A stretch of DNA of 34,388 nucleotides, taken from assembly GCA_015064315.1 (NCBI GenBank), contig SVSL01000001.1, positions 79,801 through 114,188 on the forward strand. Direction: 5' to 3'. Position numbers and translations under genes: made by a program. The notes below the pieces were generated by a model. It saw nothing but the letters and a program-made list of their open reading frames with translations. It made no database searches and was not told the origin of the DNA. The DNA is from Oscillospiraceae bacterium (GTDB taxonomy: Bacteria; Bacillota; Clostridia; Oscillospirales; CAG-272). Positions 7,442-19,597 of the stretch are shown here, in pieces. Every line of letters starts with the position of its first letter. Position 1 is the first letter of the stretch.

Positions 7442-8275
7442 CTATTTTTGCCAAATTTCGATACCGTCGGTCTCAAGAAGAATTTCTCCCAGAAGATCGA
7501 CCCTTAGAATTTTTGCCCCCGCTGCTTCAAGAGAAGCCAGAACGTCGCCGTGAGGATGTCCGTAGGAATTCCCCTTACCGCTGCTGATCAGCGCGAGCGT
7601 TGGCGACATCGCCTCCAAAAAATCAGCTCCTGTGGAGGTATTGGAGCCGTGATGACCAACCTTGTAAAGATCGCAATCCAGCTGTGACGCGCCGTAATAG
7701 TCAAGCAATGCCTGCTCCGCCTTGAGATCGGCATCCCCCGTAAAAATGGCGGAAATATTTCCACAAAAGATTTTGAGCACGATACTGTCGGCATTTCCGC
7801 TCTCAATCTCGCCCCCAAATGGGGAAAGCACAAAAAGCACCACGTCGCCAATCTCCAGCGCATCCCCAGCCTTCACCGCGCGGGGCGTGACGTTGCAGGC
7901 ATCTGCCGCATCAAGCAGTGCCGTGAAGCATTCTTCCTCACTCTCGGCACCGTTGATCCAGATCTCCTGTGCGGGAAAGCGTTGCAGAACACCGTCCGCT
8001 CCGCCGATATGATCCTCGTCGGGGTGGGTAAAGATCGCGAGCCTGAGCGTTGTCACCCCCAGCTGCTCCAGCCGTAGACAAAGCAGCTCCTGGGAGCTTT
8101 CGGTTCCGGCATCAATGAGAATATCCCCCTCTCCCGTGCGCAAGAGAAAGCAATCGCCCTGTCCCACGTCCAGCGCGTAGATCTGCAGAAGAACCTCCTT
8201 TGAGGAATCCTTCCCGCAGGAGACTCCGTACAAAAGAAGCGTGGCGGCAACAAGCAGTGCAAGCATTCTTTTCAA
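7442..8275 (-). CDS. ComEC-like metallo-beta-lactamase-fold lipoprotein
   Basis: Protein of about 277 residues resembling the soluble metallo-hydrolase domain of ComEC, but without ComEC's membrane channel. A short hydrophobic signal ends at Cys20 (LLYGVSC), an acceptable though not ideal lipobox. Motifs are LDVGQGDC (35-42), DAGT (55-58), THPDEDHIGG (83-92), FTGDAD and KVGHHGSNTST. The TTG at 8275 is taken as start because AAGGAG precedes it by nine bases and the promoter overlaps the more upstream ATGs. Relatives are thought to be extracellular phosphodiesterases or nucleases. It is the first gene of the run into the SDR and VanY genes. Confidence 0.85.
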   Translation of the reverse strand: MKRMLALLVAATLLLYGVSCGKDSSKEVLLQIYALDVGQGDCFLLRTGEGDILIDAGTESSQELLCLRLEQLGVTTLRLAIFTHPDEDHIGGADGVLQRFPAQEIWINGAESEEECFTALLDAADACNVTPRAVKAGDALEIGDVVLFVLSPFGGEIESGNADSIVLKIFCGNISAIFTGDADLKAEQALLDYYGASQLDCDLYKVGHHGSNTSTGADFLEAMSPTLALISSGKGNSYGHPHGDVLASLEAAGAKILRVDLLGEILLETDGIEIWQK

Positions 8276-8300
8276 GCAGATCCACTCCTTTTTTCTTTTC

Positions 8301-8329
8301 ATTATACCATTCGCGTACCTTTTTTTCAA
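8301..8329 (-). promoter_or_regulatory. SigA-type promoter for the MBL-SDR-VanY operon
   Basis: On the minus strand, TTGAAA (8324-8329) and TATAAT (8301-8306) are separated by 17 bases, with TGG directly before the -10. The predicted transcript start lies about 20 bases before the TTG start codon of the lipoprotein, which supports that start choice. Confidence 0.85.
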
Positions 8330-10460: not shown

Positions 10461-11828
10461 TTATGCCAGACCTTCGGCGCGAATAACCGCAAGGATCTCA
10501 TCCACAAAAGCCTCGCACTCCTCCCTGGTGGGGGCTTCACACATCACGCGGATCACGGGCTCGGTTCCGCTCTCGCGCAAAAGCACTCTGCCCCGCTTGC
10601 CAAGACGTTCTCCAATGATTCTCACCGCATTCTGCACACGCTCGTTTTCACGCACTGCCCTTTTATCGGCAACACGAAGATTTTTCAGCACCTGAGGGAA
10701 CATGATCACCGGCTCTGCCAGCTTGGAAAGCGGAAGCTTATTGCTGACGACCGCTTCCATCACCTTGATCGCCGTCAGAAGTCCATCCCCCGTGGTGGCG
10801 TATTTACTCATGATGATATGCCCCGATTGCTCACCGCCGATGCAGTTCCCCGTGGCAAGCATATTTTCGTATACAAAACGATCTCCCACGGTGGTTTGCA
10901 CGTAATCCATTCCCGCATCCTCCAATGCCCGATACAAGCCCATGTTGGACATCACGGTGGTTACGACCGTATTGTTAACCAGCTGATCCTTCTTTTTCAT
11001 CTCCTTGGCAAGAAGATAAAGGATATGATCCCCGTTGACCACCTCGCCGCGCTCATCCACGGCAATGCAACGGTCGGCGTCCCCGTCAAAGGCAAAGCCA
11101 ACGTCCAGATGATTTTCCTTGACGTGCCTTTGGAGCGCCTCAATATGGGTGGAGCCCGCCCGATCGTTGATGTTCAATCCGTTGGGCTCGGTGCCGATGG
11201 GATAGGTCTTTGCCCCAAGCGCATCGAAAACGCTTTTGGCAATCATCCATGCCGCGCCGTTGGCACAGTCAAGCCCCACGCGGAAGCCTTTGAAGGAATA
11301 TCCCGAAAGCGAGATCAGATACCCGATATAGCGGTTTCTTCCCGCCGCATAATCCACGATTTCCCCAAGATCGGCTCCCGTAGCAAAGGGAATATCCGAT
11401 GCGGGAATGCCCAAAGCCTCCCACGAGCCATCCAGATATTGCTCGATTAGACAGATGGTGTCATCATCGATCTTTTCCCCTTTTCCGTTTACCAGCTTGA
11501 TGCCGTTGTCATAATAGGGATTATGGCTTGCAGAAATCATGATTCCACAGTCAAAATCATCCCCCGCCACCGCATAAGAAACGCTTGGCGTGGTGGTAAC
11601 GTGAAGCATATAAGCATCCGCGCCCGAGGCAGTAAGCCCTGCCGCAATCGAGTATTCGAAGGTATACCCTGAGCGTCGGGTATCCTTGCCGATTACGGCA
11701 CGCACCCTTCCGCGCTTCTTCTTTGCGTAATACCATCCCAAAAATCTGCCGATCCTGTAAGCGTGCTCCGACGTCAGCGTAACACCGGCTTCTCCGCGAA
11801 ATCCGTCGGTTCCAAAATACTTTCCCAT
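10461..11828 (-). CDS. glmM: Phosphoglucosamine mutase GlmM
   Basis: GlmM converts glucosamine-6-phosphate to glucosamine-1-phosphate, on the route to UDP-GlcNAc and peptidoglycan. The 455-residue cytoplasmic enzyme has KYFGTDGFRG at the N-terminus and the phosphoserine loop ISASHNP (98-104, catalytic Ser101). It also has the metal site DGDADR (about 249-254) and the C-terminal phosphate site RESGTEPVIRVM. Length is normal. It is preceded by its own promoter (11891-11920) and followed closely by the GlmU-like gene, so the two form a short amino-sugar operon. Confidence 0.96.
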   Translation of the reverse strand: MGKYFGTDGFRGEAGVTLTSEHAYRIGRFLGWYYAKKKRGRVRAVIGKDTRRSGYTFEYSIAAGLTASGADAYMLHVTTTPSVSYAVAGDDFDCGIMISASHNPYYDNGIKLVNGKGEKIDDDTICLIEQYLDGSWEALGIPASDIPFATGADLGEIVDYAAGRNRYIGYLISLSGYSFKGFRVGLDCANGAAWMIAKSVFDALGAKTYPIGTEPNGLNINDRAGSTHIEALQRHVKENHLDVGFAFDGDADRCIAVDERGEVVNGDHILYLLAKEMKKKDQLVNNTVVTTVMSNMGLYRALEDAGMDYVQTTVGDRFVYENMLATGNCIGGEQSGHIIMSKYATTGDGLLTAIKVMEAVVSNKLPLSKLAEPVIMFPQVLKNLRVADKRAVRENERVQNAVRIIGERLGKRGRVLLRESGTEPVIRVMCEAPTREECEAFVDEILAVIRAEGLA

Positions 11829-11941: not shown

Positions 11942-11975
11942 AAAGCGTCTCTCCAACGGTGCGGAGAGACGCTTT
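11942..11975 (-). terminator. Terminator after the EEP lipoprotein gene 1
   Basis: Thirteen perfect pairs (11942-11954 with 11963-11975) with an 8-base loop, followed on the minus strand by a T-rich tract. It lies a few bases after the stop codon at 11983-11985 and separates this gene from glmM. Confidence 0.92.
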
Positions 11976-11982
11976 GAAATTC

Positions 11983-13737
11983 TTATTTCTTCAATTTGAC
12001 GTCAACGTAAATGGGATTGTGATCGGAGGAGGGCGCGAGGCACTGGTCGATCAGCACGTTGTAGAAAAGGAGCTCTACGTCGGAGGATGCAAAAACGTGG
12101 TCGATTGCCTCACCCGGTCCGCGGTGGCTCTGGGTGAACAGCTCGTGCGTGGTCTTGATAGAGCGATTGACCACCTTTGCACTCTGACAAGCGTCCAGCA
12201 TTCCGGAATTTTCCATATAGGTCTTAATGGGAGCCTCGCTCAAACGGCTGTTATAGTCTCCCGTGGTGATCACAGGACATTGGTACTTTTTCTGCATAGA
12301 AAGAACCAATTTTGCCATTTCCCCGGCTTGAACCACGCGCTCCGACATATCACTATCCTTGTCTCCGGGATTCAAATGGGTATTGATGGCTACAAAGCGA
12401 ACGCCGTCGCTCTTGCGCTCAAAGTATCCCCAGGACATGGTGCGGTGTCCGTTTCCAACCACGGGCAACGGCTCAACACCATGCTCCAGAAGCGTCAACG
12501 TTTGGGTGTTGTAAACCAAGGGGGTAAAATTGGCGTCACCGTTTTTATCCTTGCTGTCCGCGAAGGCATAGAGATCCCCAAAAAGCGCTTCCAGCTCGGG
12601 ATACCAAGCATCGGAAACCTCCTGCATACCTAAAATATCGGGTTTATAGGTAAAGATCGGCGCGATCACGGGGATCTGACGTCCCTCGATCACTGCCAGC
12701 TCGTTAAAGAGCTCACACAAAATGTTAAAGGACATCACGCGCAGATCAGCGCCCTCGGCAAGCGCGGTGCTCTCGGAGAAGCTGAAGGAATCGCCAATCT
12801 CTTCCAGCGATGCGGGTGCGTGGATCAGGAAGGAATATTGAGGAATCATGTATTTTTTGCAGAAGTTTGCAACCAGAAAATCAAACAGATCCTCGTTTTG
12901 AGAGGCAAACAGGATCTTTTTCTCCTTGACAACCGTCATGCATACAAACGGTTGCTTTGCTTCCGCCTTTCCAAAATATTCTTTGGCAAGGTGGCGGTTC
13001 ACGTCACCGATCAGAATCTCGCACGCACTCTCGGCTGTGGTATCATCCACCACGGGCAGCTCCACGCCGTAGATCTCCTTTGTATTCTTTTGGAAGAGCT
13101 CCGCGGATTTCTTCATCTTTTCCGAGCCCTTGGGATATACGATGGAGTAGCTTTTCAATTCATCCTGCTTATTGAAGAGATATTGCACAGAGCCCGTATA
13201 GGTATAATCGCCAAGATAAACGATCTCCTTTTGTCCCTGATCATTGGTGCGAACCTGCAAAAGCTTGGAGCAGAAATAATCCACGGCATCCGTAAGTCTT
13301 TCGGGCGTGTGCGCAGCAATGACGATCTTGCCGTTTTGTGTCCGAATGGCAAAATCATCGTGATTGATGCTTTGCAGAACCGCAAGGGATTCGGGGCGGT
13401 TGGTAAAGCCCACCAAAATCTCGGCATCGGTTGCGGCATTCTTATCATTGGTCCACTTAAAGGTCATGTTTCTCACGCCCTGAGAGTTGGGATAATCCAT
13501 GATCTTGGTGGCAGCATCGGTAACGGGAGGCAACGTACTGTTGGGACGAACGATGCGATAATAGCTGGTCTTGGTATCGCACAAAACAACGGGCTCAAAG
13601 CCCTCTTCGCGTTCCTCGGTTTGCTCGGGCTCGGTGGAAGGTGTTTCCGCGTTGCCATCCTTTTTGCAGGCAGCAAGAGGTGCGCAAAGCATGGAAATTG
13701 CCAAAAGCGTGATCAACAGTTTTTTCAAAGCATTCAT
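11983..13737 (-). CDS. Secreted EEP-family lipoprotein, paralog 1
   Basis: A 584-residue lipoprotein with signal peptide and lipobox LAAC (Cys24). The C-terminal about 250 residues are an endonuclease/exonuclease/phosphatase domain with every core motif: MSFNILCE, MQEVSD (metal-binding Glu), INTHLNPGD, TTGDYNS, DHVFAS and SSDHNPI. The N-terminal about 310 residues hold two related modules, each with an EILVGFTNR / EILIGDVNR motif followed by a KIVIAAH or KKILFASQ strand. These resemble the small alpha/beta domains found before some glycosidase barrels. Substrate unknown: a phosphodiester or phosphate ester outside the cell. Start chosen by AGGAG nine bases before ATG 13737; the open frame continues upstream without support. 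It has its own promoter and terminator. Confidence 0.85.
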   Translation of the reverse strand: MNALKKLLITLLAISMLCAPLAACKKDGNAETPSTEPEQTEEREEGFEPVVLCDTKTSYYRIVRPNSTLPPVTDAATKIMDYPNSQGVRNMTFKWTNDKNAATDAEILVGFTNRPESLAVLQSINHDDFAIRTQNGKIVIAAHTPERLTDAVDYFCSKLLQVRTNDQGQKEIVYLGDYTYTGSVQYLFNKQDELKSYSIVYPKGSEKMKKSAELFQKNTKEIYGVELPVVDDTTAESACEILIGDVNRHLAKEYFGKAEAKQPFVCMTVVKEKKILFASQNEDLFDFLVANFCKKYMIPQYSFLIHAPASLEEIGDSFSFSESTALAEGADLRVMSFNILCELFNELAVIEGRQIPVIAPIFTYKPDILGMQEVSDAWYPELEALFGDLYAFADSKDKNGDANFTPLVYNTQTLTLLEHGVEPLPVVGNGHRTMSWGYFERKSDGVRFVAINTHLNPGDKDSDMSERVVQAGEMAKLVLSMQKKYQCPVITTGDYNSRLSEAPIKTYMENSGMLDACQSAKVVNRSIKTTHELFTQSHRGPGEAIDHVFASSDVELLFYNVLIDQCLAPSSDHNPIYVDVKLKK

Positions 13738-13782
13738 GATCAATTCTCCTAACTCATATCGAGCGTTTGAAATTACCCATCT

Positions 13783-13811
13783 ATTGTACCACAAAAGATA
13801 CGTAAATGCAA
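13783..13811 (-). promoter_or_regulatory. Promoter of EEP lipoprotein gene 1
   Basis: On the minus strand, TACAAT (13783-13788) with TGG just before it, a 17-base spacer and a weak -35 TTGCAT (13806-13811). The weak -35 next to repeated upstream elements (13813-13851) suggests dependence on an activator or UP-element contact. Confidence 0.7.
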
Positions 13812-13812
13812 T

Positions 13813-13851
13813 ATACAAAAATATGATTTTCCGATACAAAAATATGATTTT
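13813..13851. repeat. Two 18-bp direct repeats abutting the promoter of EEP gene 1
   Basis: ATACAAAAATATGATTTT occurs at 13813-13830 and again without change at 13834-13851, giving a period of 21 bp, two turns of the helix. The pair directly flanks the -35 on its upstream side. The placement fits a regulator binding side by side on one DNA face. Confidence 0.8.
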
Positions 13852-13870
13852 TCAATATTTTTACACAAAA

Positions 13871-13903
13871 AAGTCCTCCGCAGACAGTATCCGCGGAGGG
13901 CTT
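13871..13903 (-). terminator. Terminator after EEP lipoprotein gene 2
   Basis: Eleven pairs (13871-13881 with 13893-13903, one G-T), an 11-base loop and a run of T on the minus strand. It ends the gene 3-gene 2 transcript before the promoter of gene 1. Confidence 0.88.
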
Positions 13904-13915
13904 GATGGAATCTGA

Positions 13916-15685
13916 TTACTTGTTCAGTTTAATATCTGCGTAGATGGGATAGTGGTCGGAGGAAGGTGCCAGACATTTGTCGATCAGCACGTTGTAGTAC
14001 AGAATCTCAACCTCCGAGGAAGCAAAGATATGGTCGATGGCTTCTCCCTCGCCGCGGGTGTTCTCATTGAACAGCGAGTGTGTTGTCTTGATGGCGCGGT
14101 TGATCACCTTTGCGGTGGTTCCCGCATCAAAAAATCCCGAATTTGCCACGTAGGTCTGAACGGGAACCTCGCTCATGCGGCTGTTGTAGTCCCCCGTCGT
14201 AATGATGGGACAGTTATATTGGTTCTTCAGCATCAGCGCAAACTCTGCCATTTCCTTTGCCTGTGCCGTTTGCTGGACGGTCTTGGCATCGTCGCCGCCC
14301 ACGTTCCAGTGGGTGTTGATCACCACGAAGCGAGCGCCGTCGCTCTTGCGCTCAAAGTAGCCCCAAGACATGACGCGATGCCCGTTTCCGCCGACCTCCA
14401 AGCCCTTGGCTCCGTGCTCCAGAACCGTCAGCGTTTTTGTGTTATACGCCAAAGGACTCATGTTGGTATAATTGCGGTTATCGTATTGATCCAAGATCTC
14501 GTAAGTGTCTCCAAAGAGAGGATACAGCTCGGGATACCACGCCTTGGAAACCTCCTGCATACCCAAAATATCGGGCATATAGGTAAAGATGGGCGCAACA
14601 ACGGGAAGCTGACGACCTTCAATTCCCGCATTATCGGCGTAAAGCTCGCACAGAATATTGAAGGACATGACGCGCAGATTTGCTCCCTCGGCAAGTGCGG
14701 TGCTCTCGGAGAAGTTCATGGAGTCACCGATCTCCTCGGTATCTGCGGCAAGATTCAACTGATAGGAATAATTCGAGGAAACGTATTTGGAAATAAAGGA
14801 ATGGATCATATACTCGGCAATGAGATCGGAGTGGGAAGCGATCAACAGTTTCTTCCCCTTTGCCGCGGTTACGTAGGAAAACATTGCCGTCTGTTCCTCG
14901 GTTTTGAAATATGCGTCCACCATATCGCGGTCAACCTTTCCGAGCAGGATCTCGCACTCACGCTCGGCTTCGCTGTCGGGAACGATGGGAAGCTCAACGC
15001 CGTAGGTCTCCTTCAAAGCGCTCTGCAAAGTCTCGGCAGCCTTCAAAAAGTTCGCGGAATCCTTGGGATATACGATCGCGTAATCCTTCATCGCGTTTCC
15101 GTCGGCAAGATTAAACAGATATTTCTGGGAACCTGTAAAGACGTAGTCGCCCAAATAAACCATCTCCTTCTGACCGTTTTCGTTGGTGCGGATCTGAAGC
15201 AAATTCTTGCAAAGATACTCGGCAGCCTGCGCCATTCTCTCGGCTTTGTGTGCCACAACCACGATCTTTCCGTTCTTGGATACGATGGCAAAATCATCGT
15301 AGTCGATGCTCTTAAGCACCTCCAAGGATTCGGGGCGGTTGGTGTAACCGAGCAGGATCTCATGCTCGACAGCCGCGTTCTTATCACTGCTCCACTTGAT
15401 CGTCAGATTTCTGGCACCGTTCTCGCCGGGATATTCCATGATAGCGTTGGACGCATCGGAAACCTCAATGGGCGAAGAAGCGGGACGGACGATCCGATAA
15501 TAGCTGGTGCTTGCATCGCAAAGCACGATGGGATCCACGGGAGTCTCTACACCCGTTCCCTCCGTGGTCGCGGCAGCATCCTCCGTGGGCTCTGCTTCCG
15601 CAGGAGCCTTCTGGCAGGCGGTAAAGGGCGCACAGAGCATAGAAAGGATCAAGCTTGCAATCAAAATTTTCTTCAAAGCCTTCAT
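13916..15685 (-). CDS. Secreted EEP-family lipoprotein, paralog 2
   Basis: A 589-residue paralog of its two neighbours with the same layout: signal peptide ending at Cys24 (FTAC), an acidic linker rich in Ala, Glu and Thr, two N-terminal modules (EILLGYTNRPES and EILLGKVDRDM) and the EEP domain. EEP motifs are MSFNILCEL, MQEVSK, INTHWNVGG, TTGDYNS, DHIFAS and SSDHYPI, so it should be catalytically competent. An in-frame TTG lies two codons upstream, but AAGGAG is eight bases from ATG 15685. It starts only 33 bases after the gene 3 stop codon, with no promoter visible, so it is probably cotranscribed with gene 3. Substrate unknown. Confidence 0.85.
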   Translation of the reverse strand: MKALKKILIASLILSMLCAPFTACQKAPAEAEPTEDAAATTEGTGVETPVDPIVLCDASTSYYRIVRPASSPIEVSDASNAIMEYPGENGARNLTIKWSSDKNAAVEHEILLGYTNRPESLEVLKSIDYDDFAIVSKNGKIVVVAHKAERMAQAAEYLCKNLLQIRTNENGQKEMVYLGDYVFTGSQKYLFNLADGNAMKDYAIVYPKDSANFLKAAETLQSALKETYGVELPIVPDSEAERECEILLGKVDRDMVDAYFKTEEQTAMFSYVTAAKGKKLLIASHSDLIAEYMIHSFISKYVSSNYSYQLNLAADTEEIGDSMNFSESTALAEGANLRVMSFNILCELYADNAGIEGRQLPVVAPIFTYMPDILGMQEVSKAWYPELYPLFGDTYEILDQYDNRNYTNMSPLAYNTKTLTVLEHGAKGLEVGGNGHRVMSWGYFERKSDGARFVVINTHWNVGGDDAKTVQQTAQAKEMAEFALMLKNQYNCPIITTGDYNSRMSEVPVQTYVANSGFFDAGTTAKVINRAIKTTHSLFNENTRGEGEAIDHIFASSEVEILYYNVLIDKCLAPSSDHYPIYADIKLNK

Positions 15686-15718
15686 TTCCAAATCTCCTTT
15701 AAGGGGTAATATTTTTCG

Positions 15719-17497
15719 TTATTGCTTGGTAAGCTTCAAATCGGCGTAAACGGGATAGTGGTCGGATGCACCGGCAAGAATCTTATCACACAAAGTATTA
15801 TAATAAAGGATCTCAAACTCCTCGGAGGTAAACACGTGGTCGATGGCAGCGCCCGAGGTAACGCTCGAAGCGAACAAGGTATGCGTGGTCTTGATCAAAC
15901 GGTTGACCACCTTGGCATTCAGTCCTGCATCCTTGAACCCTGTTTCCGATACGTAGTAGTCATAAGGCTCCTGACCCGTACGGTTGTTATAGTCACCCGT
16001 GGTAACGATGGGACAGTTATAGATGCTTTTCACGGTTTCTATAAACGCTACCATATCCTTTGCCTGCGTCAAACGCTCTGTATTATCCGATGCCTCGGAT
16101 CCCACATTCCAGTGGGTGTTGATGGCTACAAAGCGCGCACCGTCGCTCTTGCGCTCAAAATAGCCCCAAGACAATACACGCAGACCGCGGATTTCTGCAT
16201 TATTGCTGGCATAAGGCAAGACCTTTACGCCATGATCGAGCAATGTCATTGTCTCGGTGTTGTACAGCAAGGGACTAAAATTTACGTCTCCCAGCGAGGT
16301 AACACGATCAACAACGGCATAGGTCTCTCCCAAGAGTGGATCCAGTGCATCATACCATGCGTCAGAAACCTCCTGCAAGCCCAGAATATCGGGTTGATAG
16401 GTATAGATCGGTGCGATCACGGGGATCTCGCGTCCCTCGATCACAGCTTGATTGTTCCAAAGCTCGCACAGAATGTTAAAGGACATCACGCGCATATTGG
16501 CTCCCTCGGCAAGCTCTGTGCTGTCGGAGAAGGAAATTGCGTTGTTAACCTCCAGCGTATCGGCAGGAATGTTCAGAAGATAAGTATAATCGGGCTTGAT
16601 GTATTTGTTGCAGAAGGAGTCGATCATGTAATCGGTGATCATGTCGCTCTGCGCGCCGATCAGAATCTTCTGATCCTTTACCGCGGTAACGTAAGTGAAC
16701 ATGGACTTTTCAGTCGCATTCTCAATGTACTCCTTTGCAATGGCGCGGTTTACGTTGCCAATCAGGAGCTCGCATTCGCGCTCTGCCGCGGAATCGTCTG
16801 CCACGGGCAGTTCAACCCCGTAGGTATTCTTCAAAATGTCCCGAAGCTCCTCGGCAGCCTTCTTGAGGGTTTGGGAATCCTTTTGATATACGATGGCGTA
16901 ATCGGAAAGCTGATTTTCATTTGCCAGATTGAACAGGTACTTCTTCTCTCCCTTGAAAACGTAGTCTCCAAGATATACCAGCTCCTTCTTGCCGCTTTCG
17001 TTGGTGCGGATCTGAAGAAGGTTCTTGAGAAGATATTCCGAAGCCTCTTCCATTCTCTCTGCGGTATGAGCGGCAATTACGATCTTGCCGTTCTTATAAA
17101 CGATTGCAAAATCGTCATAGTCAATGCTCTTGAGCACCTCCAGGGATTCGGGACGGTTGGTGTAGCCGATCAGAATCTCGGCATCGGTTGCCGCGTTCTT
17201 ATCGCTGCTCCAGCTGAGCTTCAGGTTGCGCGCACCGTTGGACAGGGGATAATCCATCAGAGCAGCCGCCGCGTTGCCCACGCATTCGGGGGCGGTGGCG
17301 GGACGAACGATCTTATAATAGCTCTTGTCGGCGTCACAAAGCACAACGGGCTCAGCGAGCGCCTCCCCTTCTCCGGTTCCGGAGGTTGCGGGCTCCTCGG
17401 TGACGGCAGGCACATCCTGCTTTTTGCAGGCGGCAAGCGGCGCGCACAGCATGGAAATTGCCAAAATCGCGATCAAAAGTCTCTTTAAGGTGTTCAT
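15719..17497 (-). CDS. Secreted EEP-family lipoprotein, paralog 3
   Basis: A 592-residue paralog and first gene of the triplet transcript. Its signal peptide is nearly identical to that of paralog 1 (LAAC, Cys24). The two N-terminal modules carry EILIGYTNRPES and ELLIGNVNRAI. EEP motifs are MSFNILCEL, LQEVSD, INTHWNVGS, TTGDYNN, DHVFTS and ASDHYPV. Differences from its siblings near the active site (GDYNN for GDYNS, ASDH for SSDH, and an insert before the GYFERKSDG segment) suggest a shifted specificity. AAGGAG lies eight bases before the ATG, and a sigA-type promoter is at 17536-17564. Divergent from the PEP carboxykinase gene. Confidence 0.85.
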   Translation of the reverse strand: MNTLKRLLIAILAISMLCAPLAACKKQDVPAVTEEPATSGTGEGEALAEPVVLCDADKSYYKIVRPATAPECVGNAAAALMDYPLSNGARNLKLSWSSDKNAATDAEILIGYTNRPESLEVLKSIDYDDFAIVYKNGKIVIAAHTAERMEEASEYLLKNLLQIRTNESGKKELVYLGDYVFKGEKKYLFNLANENQLSDYAIVYQKDSQTLKKAAEELRDILKNTYGVELPVADDSAAERECELLIGNVNRAIAKEYIENATEKSMFTYVTAVKDQKILIGAQSDMITDYMIDSFCNKYIKPDYTYLLNIPADTLEVNNAISFSDSTELAEGANMRVMSFNILCELWNNQAVIEGREIPVIAPIYTYQPDILGLQEVSDAWYDALDPLLGETYAVVDRVTSLGDVNFSPLLYNTETMTLLDHGVKVLPYASNNAEIRGLRVLSWGYFERKSDGARFVAINTHWNVGSEASDNTERLTQAKDMVAFIETVKSIYNCPIVTTGDYNNRTGQEPYDYYVSETGFKDAGLNAKVVNRLIKTTHTLFASSVTSGAAIDHVFTSEEFEILYYNTLCDKILAGASDHYPVYADLKLTKQ

Positions 17498-17535: not shown

Positions 17536-17564
17536 ATCATACCATAACTGATAGAAAAAAGCAA
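17536..17564 (-). promoter_or_regulatory. Promoter of the EEP gene 3-gene 2 transcript
   Basis: On the minus strand, TTGCTT (17559-17564), a 17-base spacer and TATGAT (17536-17541), preceded by TGG. The 18-bp repeats seen at gene 1 are absent here. Confidence 0.75.
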
Positions 17565-17812: not shown

Positions 17813-19597
17813 ATGACCAACAACAAGCACGTTTTGGACTGGATCAAGGAAATGTCCGATCTGGTTCAGCCCGAGAAGATCGTTTGGATCGACGGTAGTG
17901 AGGAGCAGACCAACGCCCTGCGCGCAGAAGCCTGCGCAAGCGGCGAGCTGGAGGCTCTGAATCCCGAGAAGTACCCCAACTGCTACCTGCACCGCACCGC
18001 TATCAACGACGTTGCGCGCGTAGAGAACAGAACCTTCATCTGCACCCGCAAGAAGGAGGACGCCGGTACCATCAACAACTGGATGGATCCCCAGGAGTGC
18101 TATGCAACCCTGTCCAAGCTCTACAAGAACTCCTACAAGGGCAAGACCATGTACGTAATTCCCTACTCCATGGGCGTGGTTGGCTCTGATTTCGCAAAGA
18201 TCGGTATTGAATTGACCGACTCCATCTACGTTGTTCTCAACATGCTGATCATGACCCGCGTTGGCACCAACGTAATCGAGGCTCTTGGTGACTCCGCTGA
18301 CTTCGTTAAGGGTCTGCACGCCGTTGCTGACTGCGACGAGGAGAAGCGTTACATCTGCCACTTCCCCGAGGACAACACCATCTGGTCCGTTAACTCCGGT
18401 TACGGCGGAAACGTTCTCTTGGGCAAGAAGTGCTTTGCGCTTCGTATTGCTTCCTACCTGGGACGCAAGGAGGGCTGGATGGCTGAGCATATGCTCATTC
18501 TCGGCCTTGAGAATCCCGAGGGAGAGGTAAAGTACATCTCCGCAGCATTCCCCTCCGCTTGCGGTAAGACCAACCTGGCGATGCTCATTCCTCCTTCCAT
18601 TTACAAGAAGGCAGGCTACAAGGTATGGACCGTTGGTGACGACATCGCTTGGATCCGTGTAGGCGAGGATGGCAGACTCTATGCCGTAAACCCTGAGAAC
18701 GGCTTCTTCGGCGTTGCTCCCGGTACCAATGAGCACTCCAACTACAATGCGCTCATGACCGCACAGAAGAACTGCATCTTCACCAACGTTTGCCACAATC
18801 TGGATGACAACACCGTTTGGTGGGAAGGACTTGATAACAATCCTCCCAAGAACGCTCTCAACTGGAGAGGCGAGAAGTGGGATTACACCAAGTACGATAA
18901 GAACGATAAGGTTGGCACCTCCGGCGCTCACCCCAACTCCCGTTTCACCGCAATGGCTTCCAACTGCCCCTGCATTTCTCCCGAGTTCAACAGCCTCAAG
19001 GGCGTTCCGCTGACCGCTATCATCTTTGGTGGCCGTCGTGCAAAGACCGCTCCCCTGGTTTACGAATCCCGTAGCTGGCAGCACGGTACCTTCGTTGGTT
19101 CCATCATGGCTTCCGAGACCACCGCAGCAGCTGCAGGTGCAGTAGGTGTGGTTCGCCGCGATCCCATGGCTATGCGTCCCTTCGTTGGTTACGACATGGG
19201 CGACTACTTTGCTCACTGGCTCAACATGGGCAAGAAGATCCCCAACGCTCCCAAGATCTTCCACGTTAACTGGTTCCGCACCGATGCTGAGGGTCACTTC
19301 ATCTGGCCCGGATTCGGTGACAACATGAGAGTTCTGATGTGGATTCTCGACAGATGCGCAGGCAAGGTTGACGCTGTTGAAACCCCCATCGGCTTTGTTC
19401 CCAAGGCTGAGGATATCAACATTGAGGATCTTGACGGTGTAACCATTGACACCATCCGCGACCTGCTCACCATTGACACCGAGAGCTGGCTTGAGGACGT
19501 TGAGAACATCAAGGCGTTCTACAAGCAGATCGGCGATCGCGTTCCCGCAGAGCTTTACGATGAGCTTGCAATTCTGGAAGGCAATTTGAAGAAGTAA
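17813..19597 (+). CDS. pckG: Phosphoenolpyruvate carboxykinase (GTP type)
   Basis: Interconverts oxaloacetate and PEP with a guanine nucleotide, linking the C4-acid pool to gluconeogenesis or anaplerosis in the cytoplasm. The 594-residue protein has the GTP-class P-loop FPSACGKTN (246-254) with the reactive Cys250. DDIAW (276-280), FFGVAPGTN and the segment VVRRDPMAMRPFVGYDMGDYF are also class-typical. ATP-type PEPCK has a different loop. Codon use is strongly biased (AAC, AAG, TTC, CGC or CGT), as for a very highly expressed gene. AAGGAG lies nine bases before the ATG, after a 72-base leader. A strong terminator follows. Confidence 0.96.
   Translation: MTNNKHVLDWIKEMSDLVQPEKIVWIDGSEEQTNALRAEACASGELEALNPEKYPNCYLHRTAINDVARVENRTFICTRKKEDAGTINNWMDPQECYATLSKLYKNSYKGKTMYVIPYSMGVVGSDFAKIGIELTDSIYVVLNMLIMTRVGTNVIEALGDSADFVKGLHAVADCDEEKRYICHFPEDNTIWSVNSGYGGNVLLGKKCFALRIASYLGRKEGWMAEHMLILGLENPEGEVKYISAAFPSACGKTNLAMLIPPSIYKKAGYKVWTVGDDIAWIRVGEDGRLYAVNPENGFFGVAPGTNEHSNYNALMTAQKNCIFTNVCHNLDDNTVWWEGLDNNPPKNALNWRGEKWDYTKYDKNDKVGTSGAHPNSRFTAMASNCPCISPEFNSLKGVPLTAIIFGGRRAKTAPLVYESRSWQHGTFVGSIMASETTAAAAGAVGVVRRDPMAMRPFVGYDMGDYFAHWLNMGKKIPNAPKIFHVNWFRTDAEGHFIWPGFGDNMRVLMWILDRCAGKVDAVETPIGFVPKAEDINIEDLDGVTIDTIRDLLTIDTESWLEDVENIKAFYKQIGDRVPAELYDELAILEGNLKK

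What the first reader, a model, noticed from the sequence alone, without database searches (positions are those of the whole stretch)
11983..17497. Three tandem secreted EEP-domain lipoproteins with intact catalytic motifs
Three adjacent paralogs (584, 589 and 592 residues) share nearly the same signal peptide, lipobox cysteine and layout, and all keep the EEP metal and catalytic motifs. Local triplication of a surface phosphodiesterase- or phosphatase-type enzyme suggests selection for dose or for different substrates. Active-site neighbours differ in copy 3 (GDYNN, ASDH). I know of no named system with this architecture.
Basis: partly seen in the sequence, partly recalled or inferred. Interest (0 to 1): 0.72.

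Follow-up and report, generated by a model that had tools for sequence, protein, structure and literature searches.

The report
Tandem surface phosphoesterases on shared chassis
Three neighbouring genes in an uncultured Clostridia genome make surface-anchored enzymes that probably cut phosphate off sugars or glycans; their front half looks like a shared "tool holder" that related bacteria fit with many different cutting enzymes.

Summary

The larger result is the N-terminal half. It occurs in 109 of 146 genomes of the window's family, 85 of 295 of the order, and 2 of 397 others in a phylum sample. It carries exchangeable heads: EEP, metallo-beta-lactamase, GH26, NAGPA, alkaline phosphatase, GDPD and others, often in tandem. 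In this genome all seven carry EEP, and EEP occurs at 14 places against 0-4 in 198 other phylum genomes.

Best reading: lineage-expanded, surface-tethered, metal-dependent phosphoesterases acting on phosphorylated sugars or glycans. The substrate is untested. New variant of a known kind.

The parts
11983..13737 (-). Copy 1, 584-aa EEP lipoprotein gene (includes stop)
   Evidence: ORF; PF03372 E 2.2e-10
13916..15685 (-). Copy 2, 589-aa EEP lipoprotein gene (includes stop)
   Evidence: ORF; PF03372 E 1.4e-7; model pLDDT 94.1
15719..17497 (-). Copy 3, 592-aa EEP lipoprotein gene (includes stop), 33 bases upstream of copy 2
   Evidence: ORF; PF03372 21.9 bits alone, 25.5 with neighbours
13192..13599 (-). 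Copy 1 N-module 1
   Evidence: alignment boundaries; module 1 and 2 profiles homologous
12778..13191 (-). Copy 1 N-module 2
11986..12756 (-). Copy 1 EEP domain
15131..15538 (-). Copy 2 N-module 1
14711..15130 (-). Copy 2 N-module 2
13919..14689 (-). Copy 2 EEP domain
16949..17356 (-). Copy 3 N-module 1
16529..16948 (-). Copy 3 N-module 2
15725..16507 (-). Copy 3 EEP domain
13875..13899 (-). Intrinsic terminator-like hairpin (11 pairs) after copy 2
   Evidence: 7 terminator-like sites found against 7.0 expected by chance, so single sites are weak evidence
11942..11975 (-). Intrinsic terminator-like hairpin (14 pairs) after copy 1
   Evidence: same caveat
13783..13811 (-). Candidate promoter before copy 1, read by eye
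   Evidence: coordinates; not listed by the promoter scan
17536..17564 (-). Candidate promoter before copies 3 and 2, read by eye
   Evidence: coordinates; not listed by the promoter scan

Best explanation
Each gene makes a lipoprotein: it is exported, cut before Cys24 and tethered to the outer face of the membrane (inferred from the conserved lipobox). Two tandem modules, distantly like the GH20b/NAGLU_N/GH67N domains, hold the catalytic head away from the membrane and may touch glycan (inferred). The head is an EEP-fold, divalent-metal-dependent phosphoesterase with a complete set of catalytic residues (fold and residues shown at sequence and model level; activity inferred). Its most likely reaction is removal of phosphate from phosphorylated sugars or glycans at the cell surface, as the name of its close solved relative Bt3783 (mannosyl-6-phosphatase) suggests, so that sugar and phosphate can be taken up (inferred). 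The three copies, with a fourth elsewhere in the genome, arose by old duplication within this lineage and have been kept with different sequences, most simply because they serve different phosphorylated substrates (inferred). The chassis is a general holder in this order of Clostridia, loaded with many glycan- and phosphoester-cleaving heads; in this genome every copy found carries EEP.
Against: No substrate was tested. The rim loop SETP..KGWDA of Bt3783 is missing in all three copies and in 12 of 12 module-bearing rows, while 44 of 49 EEP-only rows keep its GWD, so the pocket is not the same. No mannanase or mannosidase was found among the 20 other window ORFs scanned. The commonest non-EEP head in my sample is a metallo-beta-lactamase fold (22 of 82; weak ComEC_Rec2 matches in 17), which fits nucleic acid at least as well as glycan. 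Neighbours of the best relatives are mixed: DNA polymerase III, MFS transporter, AMP-binding enzyme, alpha-2-macroglobulin. 3mpr and 4c1r look like one protein (same letters over the aligned stretch), so the functional hint rests on one annotated relative, whose paper I did not see.
Confidence: 0.46

Rival explanations
1. Surface nuclease or nucleotidase array: the EEP heads degrade extracellular DNA/RNA or strip phosphate from nucleotides for nucleoside and phosphate scavenging (TDP2, nocturnin or CCR4-like chemistry).
Against: Profile scores for DNase I (16 bits) and exonuclease III (22.5) are far below the Bacteroides group (119-151); ExeM score 24.1 against a cut-off of 300.
Confidence: 0.28
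2. Phospholipid- or teichoic-acid-directed phosphodiesterase (sphingomyelinase-like, or cutting glycerol-phosphate polymers).
Against: Sequence profile scores for sphingomyelinases and beta-hemolysin are at most 32 bits and mostly partial.
Confidence: 0.1
3. Recent gene amplification for dose: three copies doing the same job.
For: Tandem array, same orientation, same architecture.
Against: dS 1.4-1.6 and only 56-61% protein identity; a terminator-like hairpin and a separate promoter-like site before copy 1.
Confidence: 0.08
4. Catalytically idle EEP used as a binding module.
For: No activity has been shown for any module-bearing member; the preceding modules resemble domains of carbohydrate enzymes.
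Against: All catalytic columns kept in all three copies under purifying selection.
Confidence: 0.04

Closest known systems
Bacteroides EEP enzymes: mannosyl-6-phosphatase Bt3783 (PDB 4c1r; 3mpr looks like the same protein) and 3g6s
   Same: Nearest EEP sequence and fold; same catalytic residues.
   Different: Those chains are single EEP domains of 267-298 residues with a GWDA rim loop; here the loop is missing and two N-modules precede the EEP. Substrate untested here.
Nocturnin / PDE12 / TDP2 / CCR4 EEP phosphatases and nucleases
   Different: About half or less of the profile score of the Bacteroides group.
N-terminal alpha/beta domains of GH20, GH67, GH84, GH89 (Pfam Glyco_hydro_20b, Glyco_hydro_67N, NAGLU_N)
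   Same: Weak Pfam matches in relatives of the N-modules: NAGLU_N 6, Glyco_hydro_20b 5, Glyco_hydro_67N 2 of 17; BT_4395 O-GlcNAcase at E 0.03.
   Different: Those domains are known (recalled) to precede a glycoside hydrolase domain; here two in tandem precede an EEP or other heads, and no window copy reaches a Pfam cut-off.
ExeM/NucH extracellular nucleases
   Same: Secreted protein with an EEP domain (recalled).
   Different: NCBIfam score 24.1 at best against a cut-off of 300.

Membership tests
EEP superfamily (PF03372) | Pfam score over curated cut-off | tested here: met
   41.1 and 31.9 bits for copies 1 and 2; copy 3 21.9 alone, 25.5 with neighbours in the frame
EEP superfamily (PF03372) | Catalytic Asn, Glu, His, Asp-x-Asn, Asp, Asp-His residues | tested here: met
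   (roles of the residues recalled from APE1/nocturnin literature)
EEP superfamily (PF03372) | EEP fold | tested here: met
EEP superfamily (PF03372) | Metal-dependent phosphoester hydrolysis | not testable with these tools
   needs purified protein
Bt3783-type mannosyl-6-phosphatase | Closest in sequence and fold | tested here: met
   among the three best chains
Bt3783-type mannosyl-6-phosphatase | Rim loop SETP..KGWDA | tested here: not met
   present in 4c1r and 3mpr, absent in 3 of 3 copies. That it is defining is my judgement
Bt3783-type mannosyl-6-phosphatase | Alpha-mannan locus context | tested here: not met
   no mannanase or mannosidase among the 20 other window ORFs scanned with Pfam; that Bt3783 lies in such a locus is recalled
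Bt3783-type mannosyl-6-phosphatase | Activity on mannose-6-phosphate | not testable with these tools
   needs purified protein
GH20b / NAGLU_N / GH67N domain group (N-modules) | Pfam score over cut-off in the window proteins | tested here: not met
   best 18.2 bits against 24.3 (copy 3, Glyco_hydro_67N)
GH20b / NAGLU_N / GH67N domain group (N-modules) | Shared fold | tested here: inconclusive
   fold listing was filled by the EEP domain; a further search could not be run
ExeM/NucH extracellular nuclease | NCBIfam NF033681 over cut-off | tested here: not met
   24.1 of 300
Bacterial lipoproteins | N-terminal hydrophobic signal followed by lipobox Cys | tested here: met
   Cys24 in all three, invariant in 17 of 17

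The most novel reading that the evidence does not exclude
The twin N-module is an unnamed, order-concentrated surface chassis of Clostridia on which ten or more Pfam-distinct catalytic heads (EEP, metallo-beta-lactamase, GH26, NAGPA, alkaline phosphatase, GDPD, GDSL, AXE1, DUF4838, GH76 and others) have been swapped and then tandem-amplified: a tethered answer to the same need as the cellulosome, met by one common holder rather than a scaffold. The three window genes are an EEP-loaded array of it.
Probability: 0.55. Interest if true: 0.66.

Novelty: new variant of a known kind. Interest (0 to 1): 0.52.

Why it matters
How uncultured Clostridia of the gut present their extracellular enzymes is poorly known (recalled). 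A single exchangeable membrane-tethered chassis, found in three quarters of the genomes sampled in one family (109 of 146), would be a general answer and would let one annotate many unnamed lipoproteins by their heads. The EEP version would add phosphate removal from glycans, sugars or nucleotides to the surface repertoire of these bacteria, and the old, conserved paralogs are a ready set for testing how one EEP scaffold takes on different substrates.

Tried and rejected
Recent amplification or gene conversion: rejected, saturated dS and no patch of raised synonymous identity. Copy-3 active-site divergence as functional: rejected, columns hypervariable. DNase or sphingomyelinase assignment: disfavoured by profile scores, not excluded. 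Conserved synteny as a clue: hexapeptide transferase and glmM stay together in two same-genus genomes (G028, G090), but none of the three EEP copies was found by tblastn in the 20-kb stretches fetched there, so the array is accessory, gained here or lost there. Neighbours of the named relatives gave mixed signals. The first structure job, with three sequences, was useless (pLDDT 47). The first genome-contig scan confirmed no relative. Literature: ten searches; none of the listed titles or abstract starts showed this architecture or Bt3783; no paper was opened. Absent from the fold listing: any match to the N-modules; the tool warns that one domain can fill the list.

Limits: the 137 N-module proteins come from loci picked partly because they matched an EEP-containing query, so 53 EEP to 84 others is not a census; 82 of the 84 were scanned (two had almost no C-terminal part). 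DUF4838 proteins are recalled to carry a GH67N-like domain anyway, and one of them matched it here, so that head is the least surprising. The order count includes matches to one module only, and the two non-order matches cover about one module. Matches per genome are capped by the number of candidates scored, so counts near 17-18 are lower bounds. The lipobox count of 109 of 137 used a loose pattern. The tree has SH-aLRT support only, from 38 rows left after removing identical ones from 55, with five long branches flagged. All genomes are assemblies and may be incomplete at these loci; the window's own is 81.5% complete.

They showed that 4c1r itself has the rim loop and that 3mpr and 4c1r look like one protein; I therefore lowered the main odds from 0.48 to 0.46 and raised the first rival from 0.27 to 0.28.

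Full report
What is there. Three minus-strand genes encode lipoproteins of 584, 589 and 592 aa, 56-61% identical end to end. Each has a signal peptide with lipobox Cys24, a short linker, two modules of about 135-140 residues and a C-terminal EEP domain of about 257 residues (boundaries). On the minus strand the order is copy 3, 33 bases, copy 2, a terminator-like hairpin (13899-13875), a promoter-like site, copy 1, and a 14-pair terminator-like hairpin (11975-11942). The scans found no more terminators (7 against 7.0) or promoters (8 against 7.1) than chance, and the two promoter-like sites were read by eye, so two transcription units are probable, not shown. Flanking genes are PEPCK-like (17813-19597, plus strand, divergent) and glmM-like (10461-11828), both named from my reading of the ORFs and not from a family search, then a hexapeptide transferase.

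N-terminal half. Modules 1 and 2 are homologous to each other (hhalign 99.35%, E 6e-21). Of 17 relatives, 6 give weak matches to NAGLU_N, 5 to Glyco_hydro_20b and 2 to Glyco_hydro_67N at E up to 0.05; BT_4395 O-GlcNAcase appears at E 0.03. No window copy passes a Pfam cut-off. The fold search did not test this part, because the EEP domain filled the list.

The chassis. A profile of the twin module finds 109 of 146 genomes of the window's family, its own included (74 of 103 good ones), 85 of 295 in the order (18 rows in the family, 67 in other families by my count of the listing; many match one module only), and 3 of 398 in a phylum sample, one of them the window's own. From the fetched loci I collected 137 distinct ORFs with the module: 53 carry EEP and 84 do not. 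Pfam on 82 of these 84 C-termini gives Lactamase_B 22, GH26 15, DUF4838 5, NAGPA 5, alkaline phosphatase 5, AXE1 3, GDPD 3, GDSL 3, GxGYxYP 2, and GH76, GH88, GH127, CE2_N and BNR_2 once each, among the 25 of 32 families shown. NCBIfam gives many of the lactamase-fold heads weak ComEC matches (ComEC_Rec2 17 of 82). Single examples with full tables are; a calcineurin-like head in L025 stayed just under its cut-off. The loci were chosen partly for EEP, so these numbers show range, not frequency. Arrays occur repeatedly: seven in a row (L150), six (L151), four (L169, and L197).

This genome. All seven module-bearing places found in the window's genome lie in frames that also carry EEP; the C18 one matches module 2 only. 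PF03372 occurs at 14 places, 13 over the cut-off, against 0-4 in each of 198 other phylum genomes. In its own family the highest listed counts are G069 18, G028 16, this genome 14 and G051 12 (counts near 18 are capped). Two other same-genus genomes have 1 and 0, so the expansion varies within a genus.

History. On a 38-row tree (SH-aLRT only) the three copies form a clade (100), with the copy on contig C4 as sister (100); the four-gene array of G069 is a separate clade (100). The two arrays therefore arose independently. dN is 0.30-0.35 and dS 1.43-1.61: old, saturated, and under purifying selection, though a ratio from saturated dS is rough. In G028 and G090 the transferase-glmM pair is kept, but no EEP copy was found in the 20-kb stretch fetched around it.

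Mechanism. Shown: coding integrity, lipobox, domain order, catalytic residues, a confident model of copy 2, nearest solved relatives. Inferred: surface tethering, metal-dependent phosphoester hydrolysis, a glycan or sugar-phosphate substrate, and division of labour among copies. The glycan reading rests on the one functionally named near relative (name from the PDB title; a search for its paper found none in the library) and on the company of heads on the same chassis. The nucleic-acid reading is kept at 0.28 because metallo-beta-lactamase heads with weak ComEC matches are the commonest non-EEP head in my sample and TDP2 and nocturnin are among the next folds.

Known or new. Every part is of a known kind. 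The combination of two GH20b-like modules with EEP, and the wider head-swapping chassis, was not found under any name in Pfam or NCBIfam or in the listings of ten paper searches, which see only the open-licence library. I rate it a new variant of a known kind.

Noticed in passing
L085, L087, L088, L089, L090, L091, L092, L094 (about 7.8-10.5 kb in most), also L068 and L071: Recurrent trios of tandem EEP genes without the N-modules in named MAGs, mostly Clostridia (L071 is labelled Thermoguttaceae). In L087 the trio follows GH77, two further genes and a phosphoglucomutase; the first two EEPs have a hydrophobic N-terminal segment and the third has none.
   Followed up: partly
window 7442-8329 (-): Metallo-beta-lactamase-fold protein (PF00753, E 2.9e-19) with a lipobox-like GVSC and a DVGQGD motif, ComEC-like by eye: the same kind of head that sits on the chassis in relatives, here without N-modules.
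   Followed up: no
L150:431-13650 and L151:2317-13347: Runs of seven and six tandem module-bearing genes; the one member of each shown with a full table carries a metallo-beta-lactamase head.
   Followed up: partly
window 17813-19597 (+): This PEPCK-like gene has a second copy, 91% identical, on contig C8 of the same genome, while no match was found in two of three same-genus genomes.
   Followed up: no
L044:1127-6789, L045:1745-10750: Twin-module EEP followed by an EEP-only gene, a solute-binding-type lipoprotein (by eye) and, in L045, two F5/8 type C proteins.
   Followed up: no
L039:7273-9066: A twin-module EEP relative split by an in-frame stop into two ORF pieces in a horse-faeces MAG.
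   Followed up: no
L143:1-2481: Protein with three module matches followed by DUF4838, hinting at longer strings of the module.
   Followed up: no
alignment A6, loop between copy-2 residues 424 and 441 (window 14363-14416): Loss of the GWD rim loop goes with possession of the N-modules: 0 of 12 module-bearing rows have it, 44 of 49 EEP-only rows do.
   Followed up: partly
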